Positions 24,617 to 31,164 of a stretch of DNA of 64,000 nucleotides are shown one piece after another. Source of the stretch: Microbacterium terrae. GTDB taxonomy: Bacteria; Actinomycetota; Actinomycetes; Actinomycetales; Microbacteriaceae. The notes beneath the pieces were generated by a model, which saw nothing but the letters and a program-made list of their open reading frames with translations, was not told the origin of the DNA and did no database searches. The position numbers and the translations under genes were made by a program. The DNA lies in the NCBI RefSeq assembly GCF_017831975.1, contig NZ_JAFDSS010000001.1, positions 1,488,001-1,552,000 on the forward strand. The letters run 5' to 3'. Positions within the stretch are counted from its first letter, which is position 1. Each line of letters opens with the position of its first letter.

Positions 24617-24978
24617 GCGGCACGATCGACGAGCGCATCGCCCGCGTGACGTTCACGCCCGACGGCCTGGTGGCCGCGATCATCCAGCAGTGGGACACGC
24701 GCGAAGTGCTCATGCTCGGGTGGATGGATGCTGAGGCGCTGCGCCGCACGCTCACCGAGGGCCGCGTGACGTTCTGGTCGCGCTCGCGCCGGGAGTACTG
24801 GCGCAAGGGAGACACGTCGGGGCACATCCAGCTCGTGCGGGAAGCGCGACTGGACTGCGACGGCGACGCGATCCTCATCACGGTCGACCAGGTCGGCCCC
24901 GCGTGCCACACCGGCACGAGGACCTGCTTCGACGCCGACGACCTCGAAGCGGTCCGCGGGCCCGAGGTCACCGCGTGA
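24613..24978 (+). CDS. hisI: Phosphoribosyl-AMP cyclohydrolase
   Basis: 121 residues. Opens the adenine ring of phosphoribosyl-AMP (step 3 of histidine synthesis). Zn/Mg motifs: LDCDGDAI and CHTGTRTCF supply the conserved cysteines and aspartates; [18 protein letters not shown] is the substrate-binding block. ATGA overlap with hisF and GTGA overlap with the next membrane gene. Confidence 0.96.
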
Positions 24979-25586
24979 CGCGCCGCGCCAAGCTGCTGGC
25001 CGTCCTCGTCATCCTGGCGTGCGGCGCTCTGGGCGTCATCTCGTCGACGCAGACCTGGCTCGACGTGACGCTCGACGACGGCGCGGGGCACGTGCTCGCG
25101 GTTCCCGGGGCCTCTGCGGTCCCGGTGCTGGCACCACTCAGCCTCGCCGTGCTGGCCCTCGGCGGGGCTCTGACGATCGTCGGCCGGGTGCTGCGATACG
25201 TGTTCGGCGCGCTCACTGTCGCCATCGCGGGGATCCTCGGCTGGCTGTCGGCGTCGGTCGCGTTCTCGCACCCGACGTCGGCGATCACCGCGACCGTGAC
25301 CGAGGCTACGGGCATCACCGGCGAGGAGTCGGTCGCCGCCCTCGTCGCACAGATCACCAGCACCGCATGGCCGGGGGTCACCCTCGCGAGCTCCCTCGTG
25401 CTGCTCGCCGCGGGCGTGCTCACCCTCGCCACCGCGCACCGGTGGCAGGGGAGCGACCGCCGGTACCGCACGGATGCCGACGCCACGGCGGGCGCGCACA
25501 CCGGCGCCCGCCCGCACGACGCCGCCCAGACCGACGCGATCGAGTCGTGGGACGAGCTGTCGCGCGGCGAGGATCCGACCGTCTAG
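24975..25586 (+). CDS. Trp-biosynthesis-associated membrane protein (TIGR02234-like)
   Basis: 203 residues with four hydrophobic segments (about 7-24, 44-65, 70-90 and 130-155) and a polar, acidic C-terminal tail. Matches the conserved hypothetical membrane protein found between trpE and trpC in actinobacteria (Rv1610-type). Here it overlaps hisI by GTGA, and trpE, normally just upstream, is missing. Downstream comes the large secreted esterase gene instead of trpC. Function unknown. Confidence 0.8.
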
Positions 25587-25593
25587 ATCGCAC

Positions 25594-25623
25594 TTGTCAT
25601 TCGTTCGCATGGACCGATAGCTT
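25594..25623 (+). promoter_or_regulatory. Promoter of the large secreted protein gene
   Basis: TTGTCA (25594-25599), an 18-bp spacer and TAGCTT (25618-25623; the register GATAGC at 25616 gives a 16-bp spacer). This is one of the better -35 boxes in the window and gives an independent transcription unit with a leader of about 80 nt. Confidence 0.5.
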
Positions 25624-25711
25624 GATCGCGGACGTCGCGATCGTGGCGTCCATCGGTTCGGGAGCGTGTGAAGCACGGCGCCGCCCGCGCAATGCGATCT
25701 GGGGAGACGCG

Positions 25712-28700
25712 TTGATCGAACAGTTCGGGGACTCTACTCGTCGCGCGCGCATGCAGTGGCAAGTCGGTCGGAGAACACGTCAGGGCATTCTCGTCGTCAT
25801 GACGACAGCTGCGCTCGTGCTGGGCATGGGCGTCGGGACGGCCACAGCGGCCACCGCGTTCACGAAAGCACCCGTGCCGACGATCAGCGGCACCGTCAAA
25901 GTGGGGTCGACGCTCACCGCTGCAGCAGGCACGTGGTCGCCGTCTGCGACGCTGAGCTATCAGTGGAAGCGGAACGGCACGTCGATCTCGGGGGCGACCG
26001 CGAAGACGTACAAGCTCACGACGTCGGATGCCGGTCGCACGGTCGCCGTCACGACGACAGGCAAGCGCTCGGGGTACACGACGACGAGCAAGACGAGCGC
26101 CGGCACGGCGGTCCCGACGGTCGCGTTCACCACCGCGCCCACCCCGACGATCAGCGGCACGTCGTCTGTCGGGTCGACGCTGACCGCGACCGCCGGCACA
26201 TGGTCGCCCACCGCGACCGTGTCGTATCAGTGGAGGCGGAACGGGACTGCGATCGCCAGCGCGACGGCGAAGACTTACAAGCTCGCCACAGCGGATGCCG
26301 GACAGAAGCTCACCGTCACGGTGACCGGCAAACGCACCGGGTACACGACCACCGCGAAGACCTCCGCAGCGAAGACCATCGCGACGCTGACATTCGGCAC
26401 GGCGCCGACTCCGACCATCAGCGGTACTGCGTCGGTCGGATCGACGCTCACCGCGAACCCCGGCACATGGTCGCCCACTGCCACACTCAGCTTCCAGTGG
26501 AAGCGCAGCGGAGCAGCGATCAGCGGCGCCACCGCGAAGACCTACAAGCTGGTCGCGGCCGACGCCGGCGCATCGATCACAGTCACGGTGACGGGAAAGA
26601 AGACCGGCTACACCACGGCAGCGAAGACCTCCGCCGCCAAGACCATCGCTGCGACCGCGTTCACCACCGCGCCGACCCCGACGATCAGCGGCACCGCGAC
26701 CGTCGGCTCGACGCTCACAGCGAACCCCGGCACCTGGTCGCCCGCCGCAACCCTCACCTACCAGTGGAAGCGCAACGGGAGCTCGATCAGCGGCGCTGCA
26801 GCGGCGACGTACAAGCTCGCCGACGCTGACGCGGGGCAGAGCCTCACCGTCACGGTGACCGGTGCGCGGGCCGGCTACGCGACGACAGCGAGGACGTCGG
26901 CTGCGAAGGCGATTCCCGCGCTCGCATTCACCGCGGCGCCCACGCCGACCATCACCGGCACAGCCGCAGTCGGATCAATCCTCACCGCAAATGCCGGCAC
27001 CTGGTCGCCCACACCCACGCTCGCCTACCAGTGGAATCGCAATGGAATCGCGATCAGCGGCGCCACGAAGACGACATACGCGCTCGTCTCCGCCGATCAG
27101 GGCGCCATGATCACCGTCACCGTCACGGCGTCGAGGTCGGGCTATGCGTCGACCACACGAACAAGCGCTGTCGTCACCGTGCCGACAGGGCCTGGCGCAG
27201 CGGTTGTACAGATCTCGGCTGACATCACGGCTGACACCACGTGGGCACCTGCCAGTTCGACCGTGTATCTCCTCACGACTCAGGTAGATGTGCGGTCGGG
27301 TGTGACGTTGACCATCGGCGCCAACGCGATCGTCAAGGCGCGTACCAACGCGGGTCTGGCAGTGGAGGGGGCGTTGGTGGTGAACGGGACCGCGGGCAAC
27401 CCGGTCACCTTCACCTCGCTGCGCGATGACACCATCGGCGGAGACAGCAACAGCGACGGCGACGTCACCACCCCGCAACCCGGCGACTGGTACGGCATCA
27501 CCATCAGCTCGAAAGCGTCGATGACCGCCACGTATGCGACGGTCAAATACGCAAGTTCGGGCTGGCAATCCTCTGGCGCGGATGTTTTCCGGCTCTCGCA
27601 CGGCGCCGTCTCCGACACCCAGTACGACGGCATCCGGGTCGCAGCCGACCGATCCGGTGCGAACGCGGGCAACGCGATCATCTCGATCACCGACACGACA
27701 GTGCGCCGGGCAGGCCGGAACGGAATCACCGTGTCCGCGACGGGGCAACCCGCAGGTTCCGGAACACAGATACCCGTCCCCGTCGTCACCGACAACACCG
27801 TCACCGACTCCGGAAAGGGTTACAACAACTCATCAGTGCCCAACCAAGTCGCGATCCGGGTTCACGGGTATGCGCTCGACGGCTCCAAACTGACCGGCAA
27901 CGACGGCAACGGGAACAAGATCTCCGCGATCGCACTCTCGGGAACCCTCAAGACGAACCTCAGCCTCCCTCAGGGCGACCTCCCACTCGCCCTTCTGGAC
28001 TCCGACTACCTGACGGTCGCCGCCGGCGCGACCCTCACCATCGCCGCCGGACAGACCGTGAAGGCATACCAAGCCGGTCTGGCAGTGGAGGGGTCGTTGG
28101 TGGTGAACGGGACCGCGGGCAACCCGGTCACCTTCACCTCGCTGCGCGATGACACCATCGGCGGAGACAGCAACAGCGACGGCGACGTCACCACCCCGCA
28201 ACCCGGCGACTGGTACGGCATCACCATCAGCTCGAAAGCGTCGATGACCGCCACGTATGCGACGGTCAAATACGCAAGTTCGGGCTGGCAATCCTCTGGC
28301 GCGGATGTTTTCCGGCTCTCGCACGGCGCCGTCTCCGACACCCAGTACGACGGCATCCGGGTCGCAGCCGACCGATCCGGTGCGAACGCGGGCAACGCGA
28401 TCATCTCGATCACCGACACGACAGTGCGCCGGGCAGGCCGGAACGGAATCACCGTGTCCGCGACGGGGCAACCCGCAGGTTCCGGAACACAGATACCCGT
28501 CCCCGTCGTCACCGACAACACCGTCACCGACTCCGGAAAGGGTTACAACAACTCATCAGTGCCCAACCAAGTCGCGATCCGGGTTCACGGGTATGCGCTC
28601 GACGGCTCCAAACTGACCGGCAACGACGGCAACGGGAACAAGATCTCCGCGATCGCACTCTCGGGAACCCTCAAGACGAACCTCAGCCTCCCTCAGGGCG

Positions 28701-30841
28701 ACCTCCCACTCGCCCTTCTGGACTCCGACTACCTGACGGTCGCCGCCGGCGCGACCCTCACCATCGCCGCCGGACAGACCGTGAAGGCATACCAAGCCGG
28801 TCTGGCAGTGGAGGGGTCGTTGGTGGTGAACGGGACCGCGGGCAACCCGGTCACCTTCACCTCGCTGCGCGATGACACCATCGGCGGAGACAGCAACAGC
28901 GACGGCGACGTCACCACCCCGCAACCCGGCGACTGGTACGGCATCACCATCAGCTCGAAAGCGTCGATGACCGCCACGTATGCGACGGTCAAATACGCAA
29001 GTTCGGGCTGGCAATCCTCTGGCGCGGATGTTTTCCGGCTCTCGCACGGCGCCGTCTCCGACACCCAGTACGACGGCATCCGGGTCGCAGCCGACCGATC
29101 CGGTGCGAACGCGGGCAACGCGATCATCTCGATCACCGACACGACAGTGCGCCGGGCAGGCCGGAACGGAATCACCGTGTCCGCGACGGGGCAACCCGCA
29201 GGTTCCGGAACACAGATACCCGTCCCCGTCGTCACCGACAACACCGTCACCGACTCCGGAAAGGGTTACAACAACTCATCAGTGCCCAACCAAGTCGCGA
29301 TCCGGGTTCACGGGTATGCGCTCGACGGCTCCAAACTGACCGGCAACGACGGCAACGGGAACAAGATCTCCGCGATCGCACTCTCGGGAACCCTCAAGAC
29401 GAACCTCAGCCTCCCTCAGGGCGACCTCCCACTCGCCCTTCTGGACTCCGACTACCTGACGGTCGCCGCCGGCGCGACCCTCACCATCGCCGCCGGACAG
29501 ACCGTGAAGGCATACCAAGCCGGTCTGGCAGTGGAGGGGTCGTTGGTGGTGAACGGGACCGCGGGCAACCCGGTCACCTTCACCTCGCTGCGCGATGACA
29601 CCATCGGCGGAGACAGCAACAGCGACGGCGACGTCACCACCCCGCAACCCGGCGACTGGTACGGCATCACCATCAGCAATGGCGGCAGTGTGCACGGCTC
29701 CGGTCTGTCGGTGCGGTACGCATCGTACGGAATCACCGCAGGCCAGACATCCTCGCTTCAGCTCTCTGATTCGGGGGTCTCGTCCACGACCTCGCGGTGT
29801 CTCGATGTCACAGGGGCGGACTCCGCGAGCTACTTCCACGGCACCGTTCGCGACTGCGAGTTCGGGGTCTTTTCCTCCGGGCTTACGTACTTCGACGCTT
29901 CCGCTGTCGATTGGGGCGGCGACGAACCCCCGGGGAACGGCGCGGACGAGAGGCCGCGCGCATCAGGACCAGGGGTCGATGTCTTCCCCTGGGTTGGCTG
30001 GGTCGATCCACCCCCAGCGTCCAAGCCCAAGGTGTATGCCGCGTCGCCCTGCAAGGATCTTCTCGTCATCGGTGTCCGTGGCTCCGGTGAGGAGGCAACC
30101 TCGGCCAATCGCGACATGGGCAACATGGTCAAGACCTTCCACGACGCGTTCGTCGAGGAACTCGCCGAACAGTCGGCCTCACCGATCTCCACGCGAACCA
30201 TCGGCCTGGAGTACCCGGCGTACGCCGTACCGCTGTCATCCCCAGATGCGCCAGGTCTGCTCACTTACACGAGCGGAGCCTGGAGCGGCGCCGTCGAACT
30301 GATGTCCACACTCGAGAACGAGATCGAGCGATGCGGCTCGTCAGGGGAGAAGATTGTCCTCAACGGCTACTCCCAAGGCGCTTGGGTGATTCACTCAACC
30401 CTGGCTTACATGGAGAAGTCGAAGCGGCTACCTGTCTCGAATCTTGCTGCAGTGAATCTCATCGCGGATCCGCAGCGCGCTCAGCTCGGGGCTGAATACA
30501 ATGCGGGCAGCGCCACAGGTGACACATGGGGCGTAGCCAACGCTCAGGTCGTCGGCGTCCCAGCCGTCAGGTTCAGCAACTGGCTGGCAGGCTCGATCTA
30601 CCCTGAAGTTCGACAGTTCCAAGCGAGCAACGTGAGCAGCGAGGACATGATCACGCCGGTCGACATTCCCACCAGCTTGTTGTCACGCGTCGTGACGATC
30701 TGCAACTTCACCGATCCTGTATGCGCGATCGGCGGACGGGGCTTCCCCGACGCCGACGTTCACGGCGAATACCCGACGTCGAGCGGCTGGGCGAGATTCG
30801 TGGAGGAGTCGGCCAGCACCGCCCGAATCTACGCCGACTGA
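25712..30841 (+). CDS. Giant secreted protein: Ig-like repeats, beta-helix repeats and C-terminal cutinase-like esterase
   Basis: 1709 residues. TTG 25712 follows GGGGAG with 5-nt spacing; ATG 25751 is an alternative without a ribosome-binding site. A signal peptide (about residues 14-48, ending ATAATA) is followed by five Ig-like repeats of exactly 89 residues (49-493), each with a P[TV]ISG...TAGTWSP...YQWKRNG pattern. Residues 548-1322 hold three 241-residue repeats plus a partial fourth, with right-handed beta-helix character (Gly/Asp/Asn/Thr-rich, DWYGITI). Residues ~1440-1709 are cutinase-like: C1447, GVRGSGE, nucleophile S1554 in GYSQGA, D1668 within a CNFTDPVC loop and H1684 in DVHGEYP. 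No LPXTG or C-terminal anchor, so it is probably released or wall-associated. Ester substrate unknown. Flanked by trp-linked genes. Confidence 0.85.
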   Translation: MIEQFGDSTRRARMQWQVGRRTRQGILVVMTTAALVLGMGVGTATAATAFTKAPVPTISGTVKVGSTLTAAAGTWSPSATLSYQWKRNGTSISGATAKTYKLTTSDAGRTVAVTTTGKRSGYTTTSKTSAGTAVPTVAFTTAPTPTISGTSSVGSTLTATAGTWSPTATVSYQWRRNGTAIASATAKTYKLATADAGQKLTVTVTGKRTGYTTTAKTSAAKTIATLTFGTAPTPTISGTASVGSTLTANPGTWSPTATLSFQWKRSGAAISGATAKTYKLVAADAGASITVTVTGKKTGYTTAAKTSAAKTIAATAFTTAPTPTISGTATVGSTLTANPGTWSPAATLTYQWKRNGSSISGAAAATYKLADADAGQSLTVTVTGARAGYATTARTSAAKAIPALAFTAAPTPTITGTAAVGSILTANAGTWSPTPTLAYQWNRNGIAISGATKTTYALVSADQGAMITVTVTASRSGYASTTRTSAVVTVPTGPGAAVVQISADITADTTWAPASSTVYLLTTQVDVRSGVTLTIGANAIVKARTNAGLAVEGALVVNGTAGNPVTFTSLRDDTIGGDSNSDGDVTTPQPGDWYGITISSKASMTATYATVKYASSGWQSSGADVFRLSHGAVSDTQYDGIRVAADRSGANAGNAIISITDTTVRRAGRNGITVSATGQPAGSGTQIPVPVVTDNTVTDSGKGYNNSSVPNQVAIRVHGYALDGSKLTGNDGNGNKISAIALSGTLKTNLSLPQGDLPLALLDSDYLTVAAGATLTIAAGQTVKAYQAGLAVEGSLVVNGTAGNPVTFTSLRDDTIGGDSNSDGDVTTPQPGDWYGITISSKASMTATYATVKYASSGWQSSGADVFRLSHGAVSDTQYDGIRVAADRSGANAGNAIISITDTTVRRAGRNGITVSATGQPAGSGTQIPVPVVTDNTVTDSGKGYNNSSVPNQVAIRVHGYALDGSKLTGNDGNGNKISAIALSGTLKTNLSLPQGDLPLALLDSDYLTVAAGATLTIAAGQTVKAYQAGLAVEGSLVVNGTAGNPVTFTSLRDDTIGGDSNSDGDVTTPQPGDWYGITISSKASMTATYATVKYASSGWQSSGADVFRLSHGAVSDTQYDGIRVAADRSGANAGNAIISITDTTVRRAGRNGITVSATGQPAGSGTQIPVPVVTDNTVTDSGKGYNNSSVPNQVAIRVHGYALDGSKLTGNDGNGNKISAIALSGTLKTNLSLPQGDLPLALLDSDYLTVAAGATLTIAAGQTVKAYQAGLAVEGSLVVNGTAGNPVTFTSLRDDTIGGDSNSDGDVTTPQPGDWYGITISNGGSVHGSGLSVRYASYGITAGQTSSLQLSDSGVSSTTSRCLDVTGADSASYFHGTVRDCEFGVFSSGLTYFDASAVDWGGDEPPGNGADERPRASGPGVDVFPWVGWVDPPPASKPKVYAASPCKDLLVIGVRGSGEEATSANRDMGNMVKTFHDAFVEELAEQSASPISTRTIGLEYPAYAVPLSSPDAPGLLTYTSGAWSGAVELMSTLENEIERCGSSGEKIVLNGYSQGAWVIHSTLAYMEKSKRLPVSNLAAVNLIADPQRAQLGAEYNAGSATGDTWGVANAQVVGVPAVRFSNWLAGSIYPEVRQFQASNVSSEDMITPVDIPTSLLSRVVTICNFTDPVCAIGGRGFPDADVHGEYPTSSGWARFVEESASTARIYAD
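25856..27190 (+). repeat. Five tandem 267-bp Ig-like coding repeats
   Basis: Repeats begin at 25856, 26123, 26390, 26657 and 26924 with exact 267-bp period. They are clearly homologous but diverged at synonymous sites, unlike the 723-bp repeats that follow. Confidence 0.9.
27353..29677 (+). repeat. Near-identical 723-bp tandem coding repeats (3.2 copies)
   Basis: Copies at 27353-28075, 28076-28798, 28799-29521 and a partial copy at 29522-29677. By eye copies 2, 3 and the partial 4 are identical, and copy 1 differs at one position near its start (GGGGGCG versus GGGGTCG). Each encodes 241 residues. Confidence 0.95.
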
Positions 30842-30933: not shown

Positions 30934-31164
30934 ATGAGCAACCCCATCGGCGACCCCGGCCACGGACACTCGCCCGCCGCCTGGACTGCCGTCGTGATCA
31001 TGCTCGTGGCGGTCGCGTTCGGCACCCTGTTCTTCTACCTCGACATGCCGGTGCTCGTGTGGATCTCGGCGGGCCTGCTCGTCGTCGGCGCACTCGTCGG
31101 CTGGGGCATGACGAAGGCCGGCTACGGCGTTGGTGGATCCAAGTACGTCGCGAAAGAGCACTGA
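30934..31164 (+). CDS. HGxxPAAW-type small membrane protein
   Basis: 76 residues. Contains the family signature HGHSPAAW near the N-terminus, two transmembrane segments (about 18-36 and 39-60) and a basic Gly-rich tail (GYGVGGSKY). AGGAGG precedes ATG 30934. Found next to trpC in many actinobacteria; no function is known. trpC starts 3 bases after its stop, indicating co-translation. Confidence 0.85.
   Translation: MSNPIGDPGHGHSPAAWTAVVIMLVAVAFGTLFFYLDMPVLVWISAGLLVVGALVGWGMTKAGYGVGGSKYVAKEH

What the first reader, a model, noticed from the sequence alone, without database searches (positions are those of the whole stretch)
25712..30841. Giant secreted protein ending in a cutinase-like esterase
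One 1709-residue frame joins a signal peptide, five exact-length Ig-like repeats, beta-helix-like repeats and a C-terminal domain with a full cutinase pattern: GVRGSGE, GYSQGA nucleophile (S1554), Asp within a C-x6-C loop, and His in DVHGEYP. Known cutinases and Culp proteins are single small domains. A long repeat stalk carrying an esterase at the tip suggests a surface-displayed or released enzyme acting on polyester, lipid or mycolate-like targets, or on other cells. I know of no described protein with this order.
Basis: partly seen in the sequence, partly recalled or inferred. Interest (0 to 1): 0.75.

Follow-up and report, generated by a model that had tools for sequence, protein, structure and literature searches.

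The report
Repeat stalk with exchangeable cutinase tip
A Microbacterium makes a giant secreted protein that carries a cutinase-like enzyme at the end of a long repetitive stalk; a close relative keeps the stalk but carries a different tip, which suggests a swappable extracellular tool rather than a one-off fusion.

Summary
One frame (25712-30841, 1709 aa) encodes a signal peptide, five 89-aa Ig-like repeats, a beta-helix-like stalk and a C-terminal PF01083 cutinase domain (E 3.4e-12) with Ser1554, Asp1668, His1684 and four cysteines invariant in 39 sequences. AlphaFold2 gives a cutinase fold (pLDDT 84.6; Z 19.4 to a cutinase-like enzyme). The order is not unique: 9 of 295 sampled Microbacterium genomes have it (two cut by contig ends), as do one more Microbacterium and Herbiconiux oxytropis. 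Of 148 genomes whose site could be judged, 7 carry a stalk gene at this trp site and 141 do not. Two close relatives share stalk and flanks, but one ends in a cutinase and the other in an unrelated 8-cysteine domain, which recurs on this stalk type in another genus. Most likely: a secreted, stalk-borne CE5 esterase in a family of modular stalk proteins with homogenised repeats and replaceable tips. Substrate and anchoring are unknown. New variant of known kinds.

The parts
25594..25621 (+). promoter-like element TTGTCA-N16-GATAGC; a similar element is seen by eye upstream of the gene in G247, G103 and G009
   Evidence: read by eye; the consensus scan reported no promoter here
25701..25706 (+). 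Shine-Dalgarno-like GGGGAG, 5 nt before the TTG start
25712..30841 (+). giant secreted protein, 1709 aa
25712..25858 (+). signal peptide, residues 1-49 (cleavage near A46 or A49, inferred)
   Evidence: sequence; strongest hydropathy windows of the protein at residues 24-44
25868..27208 (+). five Ig-like repeats of 89 aa (residues 53-499)
27209..27355 (+). lead-in to the beta-helix stalk
27356..28078 (+). beta-helix repeat copy 1 (723 bp)
   Evidence: 1 mismatch of 723 to copies 2 and 3
28079..28801 (+). beta-helix repeat copy 2 (723 bp)
   Evidence: identical to copy 3
28802..29524 (+). beta-helix repeat copy 3 (723 bp)
29525..29677 (+). partial fourth copy, 153 bp, identical to copy 3
29678..30037 (+). 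end cap of the beta-helix and proline-rich linker to the tip (PWVGW motif)
   Evidence: alignment A4, model
30038..30838 (+). cutinase (CE5) tip domain, residues 1443-1709
30371..30373 (+). nucleophile Ser1554 codon (GYSQGA)
   Evidence: invariant in A1 and A2
30713..30715 (+). catalytic Asp1668 codon inside the C1664-C1671 loop
   Evidence: invariant in A1 and A2
30761..30763 (+). catalytic His1684 codon
   Evidence: invariant in A1 and A2
24975..25586 (+). upstream flank: small membrane protein gene of the trp region (TIGR02234-like, name recalled)
   Evidence: the same neighbour in G009, G017, G052, G103 and G247; not seen for G111, whose contig ends in the gene
30934..31164 (+). downstream flank: HGxxPAAW-type small membrane protein gene (name recalled), followed by trpC, trpB, trpA, lgt, gltB
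   Evidence: follows the gene at all 7 occupied trp sites

Best explanation
This is a secreted, stalk-borne carboxylic-ester hydrolase of the cutinase/CE5 family. Shown by sequence and model: a signal peptide, an Ig-like segment, a beta-helix-like rod built of perfect repeats, and a cutinase fold with an intact catalytic triad at the far end. Inferred: the protein is exported by Sec, stays at or near the wall through its N-terminal part, and the rod holds the esterase away from the cell so that it can attack insoluble or bulky ester substrates such as plant polyester (cutin, suberin) or acylated polysaccharide. Supported by comparison: the stalk gene is modular. Its repeats are homogenised or re-amplified within each gene, and its C-terminal tip can differ as a unit: diverged cutinase alleles, an unrelated 8-cysteine domain, or no tip.
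For: Domain and triad: Pfam E 3.4e-12; S, D, H and four Cys invariant in 39 sequences. Fold: pLDDT 84.6, pTM 0.85; Foldseek E 1.7e-8 to acetylxylan esterase, 58 PDB matches at E<=0.001; Z 19.4, rmsd 2.5, 189 aligned to 7cc4. Purifying selection on the tip: dN 0.14-0.18 against dS 1.3-1.7 in three species pairs. Recurrence: 9 of 295 genus genomes plus two further loci. Repeat homogenisation: G247 copies 99.9% alike against about 89% to the copies of its close relative G103. Tip replacement: between G247 and G103, eight of ten flank genes have dS 0.11-0.27 and two have under 0.02, the Ig part dS 0.31 and the first helix 0.23, but the tips are 25% identical, as shuffled sequence is (26%). The G103 tip has a homologue in another genus, G333, E 6e-24 in a two-sequence comparison, 8 cysteines aligned. 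Wall contact for a cousin of the same order: CWB2 E 3.9e-37.
Against: No activity, localisation or substrate is known. No sortase motif or C-terminal anchor is present, so the protein could simply be released. Only one close pair shows a complete tip difference; the second pair (G134/G121) is mosaic but ambiguous, because its one informative upstream gene has dS 0.75 against 1.32 for the tip and 0.12 for the Ig part. The stalk model is of moderate confidence (pLDDT 74, pTM 0.58), rests on 6 sequences, and its PDB match is weak. Residues about 1610-1650 of the cutinase model are weak (pLDDT 58-68). The gene is rare (7 of 148 at the site), so its benefit is conditional.
Confidence: 0.66

Rival explanations
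1. An ordinary secreted depolymerase: the repeats are a passive substrate-binding or spacer part, the enzyme is released, and tip differences are just sequence drift and domain loss.
For: No wall anchor. Cutinase domains are found in many unrelated multi-domain secreted proteins of the same family and phylum. The weak PL6 match of the stalk is to a polysaccharide-cleaving beta-helix enzyme.
Against: Near-perfect repeats are also present, with another sequence and length, in G247. The G247/G103 tip break is abrupt and flanked by about 90% identity before and 98-100% just after, which drift does not give. The replacement tip has a relative in another genus.
Confidence: 0.22
2. An antagonism system: a stalk that delivers exchangeable C-terminal toxins (here a lipid or mycolate esterase, as phage lysin B) to other bacteria, like a polymorphic toxin.
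For: Exchangeable C-terminus on a conserved stalk. Fold close to mycobacteriophage lysin B, Z 17.3, and to viral lysin B models.
Against: No gene that could be an immunity partner at the trp site: the next gene is the conserved HGxxPAAW gene at all 7 occupied sites, whatever the tip. Between G247 and G103 no neighbour is replaced with the tip. Lysin B is not the nearest fold. Neighbours at the other loci were not examined for this.
Confidence: 0.08
3. An adhesin in which the cutinase-fold tip serves mainly for binding, with catalysis secondary.
For: Stalk-plus-tip layout like fibrillar adhesins and Periscope Proteins (PMC8201768, PMC9704523). The alternative 8-Cys tip matches no Pfam family.
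Against: Triad, oxyanion-hole motif and disulfide cysteines are conserved and the tip is under purifying selection, which a mere binder would not need.
Confidence: 0.12

Closest known systems
Cutinase / carbohydrate esterase family 5 (PF01083), e.g. fungal cutinases, acetylxylan esterase, 7cc4
   Same: fold, Ser-Asp-His triad, GYSQG motif, conserved cysteines
   Different: known enzymes are described as 20-25 kDa (PMC8577158, abstract and introduction); here the domain ends a 1709-aa stalk protein
Mycobacterial cutinase-like proteins (Culp, Rv3802c)
   Same: 27-32% identity over the domain, Z 19.0 to 5w95
   Different: the mycobacterial rows, with one unassigned actinomycete, form their own clade of 27 (98/96) without the window's protein, which groups with stalked Microbacteriaceae tips; no mycolate envelope in Microbacterium (recalled)
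Periscope Proteins (SasG, Rib, Sgo_0707)
   Same: long, near-identical DNA repeats forming a stalk (PMC8201768: found passages and section 7 read). Enzymes with such repeats are known: the review PMC9704523 (found passages read) names autolysins and LytD and says the role of their repeat variability is not defined
   Different: SasG and Rib have a ligand-binding N-terminal head and a C-terminal wall anchor; here a C-terminal esterase, no LPXTG, and a beta-helix-like repeat of 241 aa against the 50-165 residues given in the review
Polymorphic toxins
   Same: conserved long N-terminal part with replaceable C-terminal domain
   Different: no adjacent immunity gene at the trp site; the tip is an esterase-type domain without known toxicity
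Mycobacteriophage lysin B
   Same: cutinase-like alpha/beta hydrolase, Z 17.3
   Different: phage lysis enzyme in another context; no stalk (recalled)

Membership tests
Cutinase / CE5 (PF01083) | profile match over the curated cut-off | tested here: met
   47.1 bits against 25.9
Cutinase / CE5 (PF01083) | Ser-Asp-His triad with GxSxG nucleophile | tested here: met
   S1554, D1668, H1684 invariant in 9 and in 39 sequences
Cutinase / CE5 (PF01083) | two conserved disulfide cysteine pairs | tested here: met
   C1447, C1541, C1664, C1671 invariant; the bonds themselves were not tested
Cutinase / CE5 (PF01083) | alpha/beta hydrolase fold of the cutinase type | tested here: met
Cutinase / CE5 (PF01083) | esterase activity on cutin or short esters | not testable with these tools
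   needs an assay
Cutinase / CE5 (PF01083) | small enzyme of 20-25 kDa (typical, not required) | tested here: not met
   1709 aa; size of known enzymes from PMC8577158
Mycobacterial Culp | groups with mycobacterial cutinase-like proteins | tested here: not met
   mycobacterial rows form a separate starred clade; the tree has long branches and weak deep forks
Periscope Proteins | highly identical tandem DNA repeats coding for a stalk | tested here: met
   723-bp copies with 0-1 mismatches
Periscope Proteins | repeat number varies between closely related strains | tested here: inconclusive
   G247 has one roughly 843-bp helix repeat more than its close relative G103; no strains of one species were at hand
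Periscope Proteins | C-terminal wall anchor (LPXTG) with N-terminal head | tested here: not met
   no LPxTG-like motif; the enzyme is C-terminal
Periscope Proteins | repeats fold individually and form a rod | tested here: inconclusive
   nearly all-strand, beta-helix-like model, pLDDT 74
Polymorphic toxin | exchangeable C-terminal domain on a conserved N-terminal part | tested here: met
   one close pair, G247 and G103; second tip type also in G333
Polymorphic toxin | adjacent immunity gene that changes with the tip | tested here: not met
   the HGxxPAAW gene follows at all 7 occupied trp sites; no replaced neighbour between G247 and G103; other loci not examined
Polymorphic toxin | toxicity of the C-terminal domain | not testable with these tools
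   needs an assay

The most novel reading that the evidence does not exclude
Microbacteriaceae own a modular 'interchangeable-tool' secreted stalk: a variable-length rod of homogenised repeats whose C-terminal tip is replaced as a cassette, in several lineages at one fixed chromosomal site between trp genes, with diverged cutinases and an 8-cysteine domain as two recurrent tools, so that close species differ in what they do at a distance from the cell.
Probability: 0.4. Interest if true: 0.75.

Novelty: new variant of a known kind. Interest (0 to 1): 0.6.

Why it matters
It joins two fields that rarely meet: length-variable repeat stalks, known mainly as adhesins of pathogens, and CE5 esterases, known mainly as small free enzymes. 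If the tips are swapped as units, the locus is a natural experiment in which one scaffold carries different extracellular functions. It also offers deeply diverged cutinase alleles (28-44% identical between the tip lineages compared) for polyester and plant-surface work.

Tried and rejected
Considered and rejected: (1) a chance motif match: rejected by Pfam, alignment and fold. (2) A frame artefact of high G+C: rejected by 77% identity to G017 at the same site and dN/dS well under 1. (3) A unique fusion: rejected by recurrence. (4) Remnants ('scars') of the gene on empty sites of the G247 clade: the gaps of 31-479 nt (57 of the 59 loci fetched) hold no piece that I recognised by eye as the gene; those of the G247 clade hold other short inverted repeats. 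(5) An immunity gene: none seen at the trp site. (6) The 2.8-kb hisI-trpC distances in six genomes as another insert: on reading, their trpMem-HGxxPAAW gap is 49-109 nt, so the extra DNA lies before trpMem (a seventh, G013, is alike). (7) tblastx between seven non-trp loci for shared neighbours gave scattered matches and no clear common neighbour by eye except G134/G121.

Led nowhere: a first genome-contig scan with the window's domain alone (28 pattern matches, no relative); promoter and terminator scan; plasmids, where only 5 of 72,556 records had a match, 24-30% identical, in Rhodococcus and Gordonia; papers with cutinase plus Ig-like plus beta-helix, cutinase plus polymorphic toxin, cutinase plus multidomain plus actinobacteria plus domain architecture, and Ig-like plus beta-helix plus Microbacteriaceae (none held all terms). 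Of the 80 loci kept (162 relatives found) I read the frames of nine. VIA-align lists only Foldseek's own matches, so absent families mean nothing there. Repeat number within one species could not be studied, because one genome per species is held.

Results against my reading, told plainly: only one complete tip difference between close relatives; G134/G121 ambiguous; dS values above 1 are near saturation and come from the simple NG86 method; one search lists every open frame, right or wrong, so I recomputed flank dS from the true coding sequences; the tree has long branches and an open deep fork; the 8-Cys tip was found in 1 of 247 genus genomes and, by its stalk, in one genome of another genus; repeat-bearing enzymes are already named among Periscope Proteins; the promoter scan did not confirm the promoter that I read by eye.

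Full report
WHAT IS THERE. The window lies in a 3,895,570-base genome held as one contig. Its genus is Microbacterium: G017, of the same genus, has the gene on a contig of 640,414 bases at the coordinates of NZ_JAKYXC010000002.1, Microbacterium sp. CFH 31415. The frame 25712-30841 translates to 1709 aa without a stop. It starts with TTG behind GGGGAG, the arrangement seen with ATG in G247. It has a signal peptide, five Ig-like repeats with exact 89-aa spacing that are 74% alike in DNA, a beta-helix-like stalk, and a cutinase domain (Pfam E 3.4e-12). It is the only gene of the genome that matches PF01083 at E<=0.001.

THE TIP. In an alignment of nine relatives and of 39 the nucleophile Ser1554, Asp1668, His1684 and Cys1447, 1541, 1664 and 1671 are invariant. 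AlphaFold2 with the 39-sequence alignment gives pLDDT 84.6 and pTM 0.85, with a weak stretch near residues 1610-1650. Foldseek finds acetylxylan esterases and cutinases (E 1.7e-8 at best; TM to the query about 0.5). VIA-align gives Z 19.4 (rmsd 2.5, 189 aligned) to 7cc4, 19.0 (3.7, 230) to Rv3802c (5w95), 18.7 (3.6, 195) to acetylxylan esterase 1qoz and 17.3 (3.5, 184) to lysin B 3hc7. Z values under 1 apart are tied, so the fold does not tell the substrate. By sequence alone one PDB sequence was found (4psc, called carbohydrate esterase family 5, E 2.1e-4).

THE STALK. They are in fact a 723-bp tandem array: copies 2 and 3 are identical, copy 1 differs at 1 of 723 positions, a 153-bp partial fourth copy is identical, and the run 27372-29677 is exact. 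A model of the last repeat, cap and tip (6 sequences, pLDDT 74, pTM 0.58) is nearly all strands up to the tip. Its best PDB match by E-value is a PL6 alginate lyase, a beta-helix protein (E 2.4e-4, TM 0.09: a weak match).

RELATIVES. In 295 genomes of the genus, 11 have a relative of the tip at E<=1e-5. Read one by one, 9 of the 11 have Ig-like repeats, beta-helix coils and the tip; two of these are cut by contig ends (G111 inside the Ig part, G052 in the stalk, with Ig repeats on L057 and the tip on L021). G169 has the tip inside a different giant protein and G293 is a single-domain enzyme. The stalk search found 11 of 295 genomes: the same 9 plus G009 and G103. Among 80 loci kept from the genome collection, of which I read nine, Herbiconiux oxytropis (L119) and Microbacterium sp. 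VKM Ac-2923 (L120) have the same order. A scan of the family with the tip alignment found 21 of 299 genomes, 15 of 85 genera. Of ten such loci fetched I read nine: G415 (L218) has CWB2 wall-binding repeats, Ig, beta-helix and cutinase; the other eight have other orders, three of them with a hydrophobic or LARTG-type end (L222, L225, L227, by eye).

THE SITE. The gene sits between a small membrane-protein gene after hisI and the HGxxPAAW gene before trpC. Of 148 genus genomes for which the site could be judged, 7 hold a stalk gene there (G000, G009, G017, G052, G103, G111, G247) and 141 do not. The 148 are: 94 with hisI and trpC on one contig and both places listed (2 occupied; 86 empty by a distance of 867-1099 nt; 6 empty on reading); 49 of 51 further fetched loci (2 too short to judge, all 49 empty with gaps of 41-486 nt between the two matches); and 5 occupied loci (G111 and G052 on two contigs). 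The other 147 of 295 were not judged, because their places were not listed. The stalk genes of G008, G096, G121, G134, L119, L120, L218, L238 and L239 have no his or trp gene nearby; in G121 and G134 the gene lies before ribosomal protein genes (read by eye). The cutinase tips at the trp site belong to three deep lineages: G000/G017; G111, which groups with Herbiconiux and G008; and G247/G052, which group with G415 (2 changes of the label 'stalk' on the tree, 0 of 500 shuffles as low; deep forks weak, long branches flagged).

REPEATS AND TIPS. G247 carries 843-bp helix repeats that are 99.9% alike, while they are about 89% like those of its close relative G103, whose own copies are 96.8% alike. 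So copies are made alike within each gene. The two genes are 89.5% identical over 4120 nt. Of ten flank genes, eight have dS 0.11-0.27; the gene just after the tip (HGxxPAAW) and part of lgt have only 0.02 and 0.01, which would fit, but does not prove, an exchange tract ending there. The Ig part has dS 0.31 and the first helix 0.23. Then, from about L022:9101 to 10400, identity falls to 0.44-0.69 and returns to 0.98-1.00 from 10501. The tips are 25% identical, and shuffled sequence gives 26%. G247 has a cutinase; G103 has a domain without any Pfam match, found in 1 of 247 genus genomes but homologous, with all 8 cysteines aligned (E 6e-24 in a two-sequence comparison), to the end of a stalk protein of another genus, G333. 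G009 and G391 end after the stalk without a tip; I recognised no relic in the three forward frames of the next 300 and 700 nt. G008 has a second stalk protein whose end matches neither tip clearly. The pair G134/G121 is also mosaic (Ig part dS 0.12, helix 0.65, tip 1.32), but the one informative gene upstream has dS 0.75, so there it may be the Ig part that was exchanged.

HOW IT PROBABLY WORKS. Export by the signal peptide and catalysis by the triad follow from the families. That the rod holds the enzyme away from the cell is inference from the layout; that the protein stays on the cell is open, since there is no LPxTG motif and no second strongly hydrophobic segment. Low dN/dS in the tip (0.14-0.18 over 1.3-1.7) argues that its function matters. 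The target is not settled by any result here. I favour external ester polymers of plant or organic matter, because the nearest folds are cutinases and acetylxylan esterases and because the organism lacks mycolates (recalled); lysin-B-like attack on mycolate-bearing neighbours is the bolder rival.

KNOWN OR NEW. As an enzyme it is a CE5 member. As a layout it resembles Periscope Proteins (found passages and section 7 of PMC8201768, found passages of PMC9704523), of which the best known have N-terminal heads and C-terminal anchors; the review also names some repeat-bearing cell-wall enzymes. A CE5 survey that mined over 3000 members (PMC8577158; abstract, outline and found passages seen) does not use the words modular, multimodular or binding module in its main text. 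A fibrillar-adhesin survey that covers Actinobacteria (PMC9210967; found passages seen) does not mention cutinase or esterase. The lists of nine paper searches (some lists were cut, e.g. 20 of 51) show no description of this order; only open-licence papers are held. I therefore call it a new variant of a known kind.

Noticed in passing
L055:7504-8118 and the C-terminal 200 aa or so of the stalk protein in L239: An unnamed domain with 8 conserved cysteines ends stalk proteins in two genera of Microbacteriaceae; no Pfam match for the L055 copy.
   Followed up: partly
L056:5147-8728: G008 has a second Ig-plus-beta-helix stalk protein (1193 aa) with yet another C-terminus.
   Followed up: partly
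L218:8819-12976: A protein of another Microbacteriaceae genus joins two CWB2 wall-binding repeats, Ig, beta-helix and cutinase.
   Followed up: partly
L022:10501-10900 against L055: The stretch just after the replaced tip is almost identical between G247 and G103 (HGxxPAAW gene dS 0.02 against about 0.2 for most other flank genes), as if an exchange tract ended there.
   Followed up: partly
L022:13654-14644: lgt of G247 matches the window's lgt in two pieces, perhaps a frameshift or a sequencing error.
   Followed up: no
L133:9806-11968 and L158:9809-11887: Blastococcus proteins that join a cutinase domain to what looks like an SGNH-type esterase (second domain judged by eye).
   Followed up: no
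L023:9249-10121: Single-domain cutinase of Microbacterium G293 close to a relaxase/helicase-like gene and a resolvase-like gene (judged by eye), as on a mobile element.
   Followed up: no
L064, L097, L069 and other loci of the G247 clade, gap before the HGxxPAAW gene: The intergenic gap holds repeated short inverted repeats (GAGAAACGC ... GCGTTTCTC type) that I did not see in the short gaps of other clades.
   Followed up: no
L109-L114 and L060, between hisI and the next small membrane-protein gene: About 1.8 kb of extra DNA in seven genomes, probably trpE (not tested).
   Followed up: no
L020:6489-19901: Microbacterium G169 has a cutinase domain in the middle of a protein of over 4400 aa with many other repeats.
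   Followed up: no
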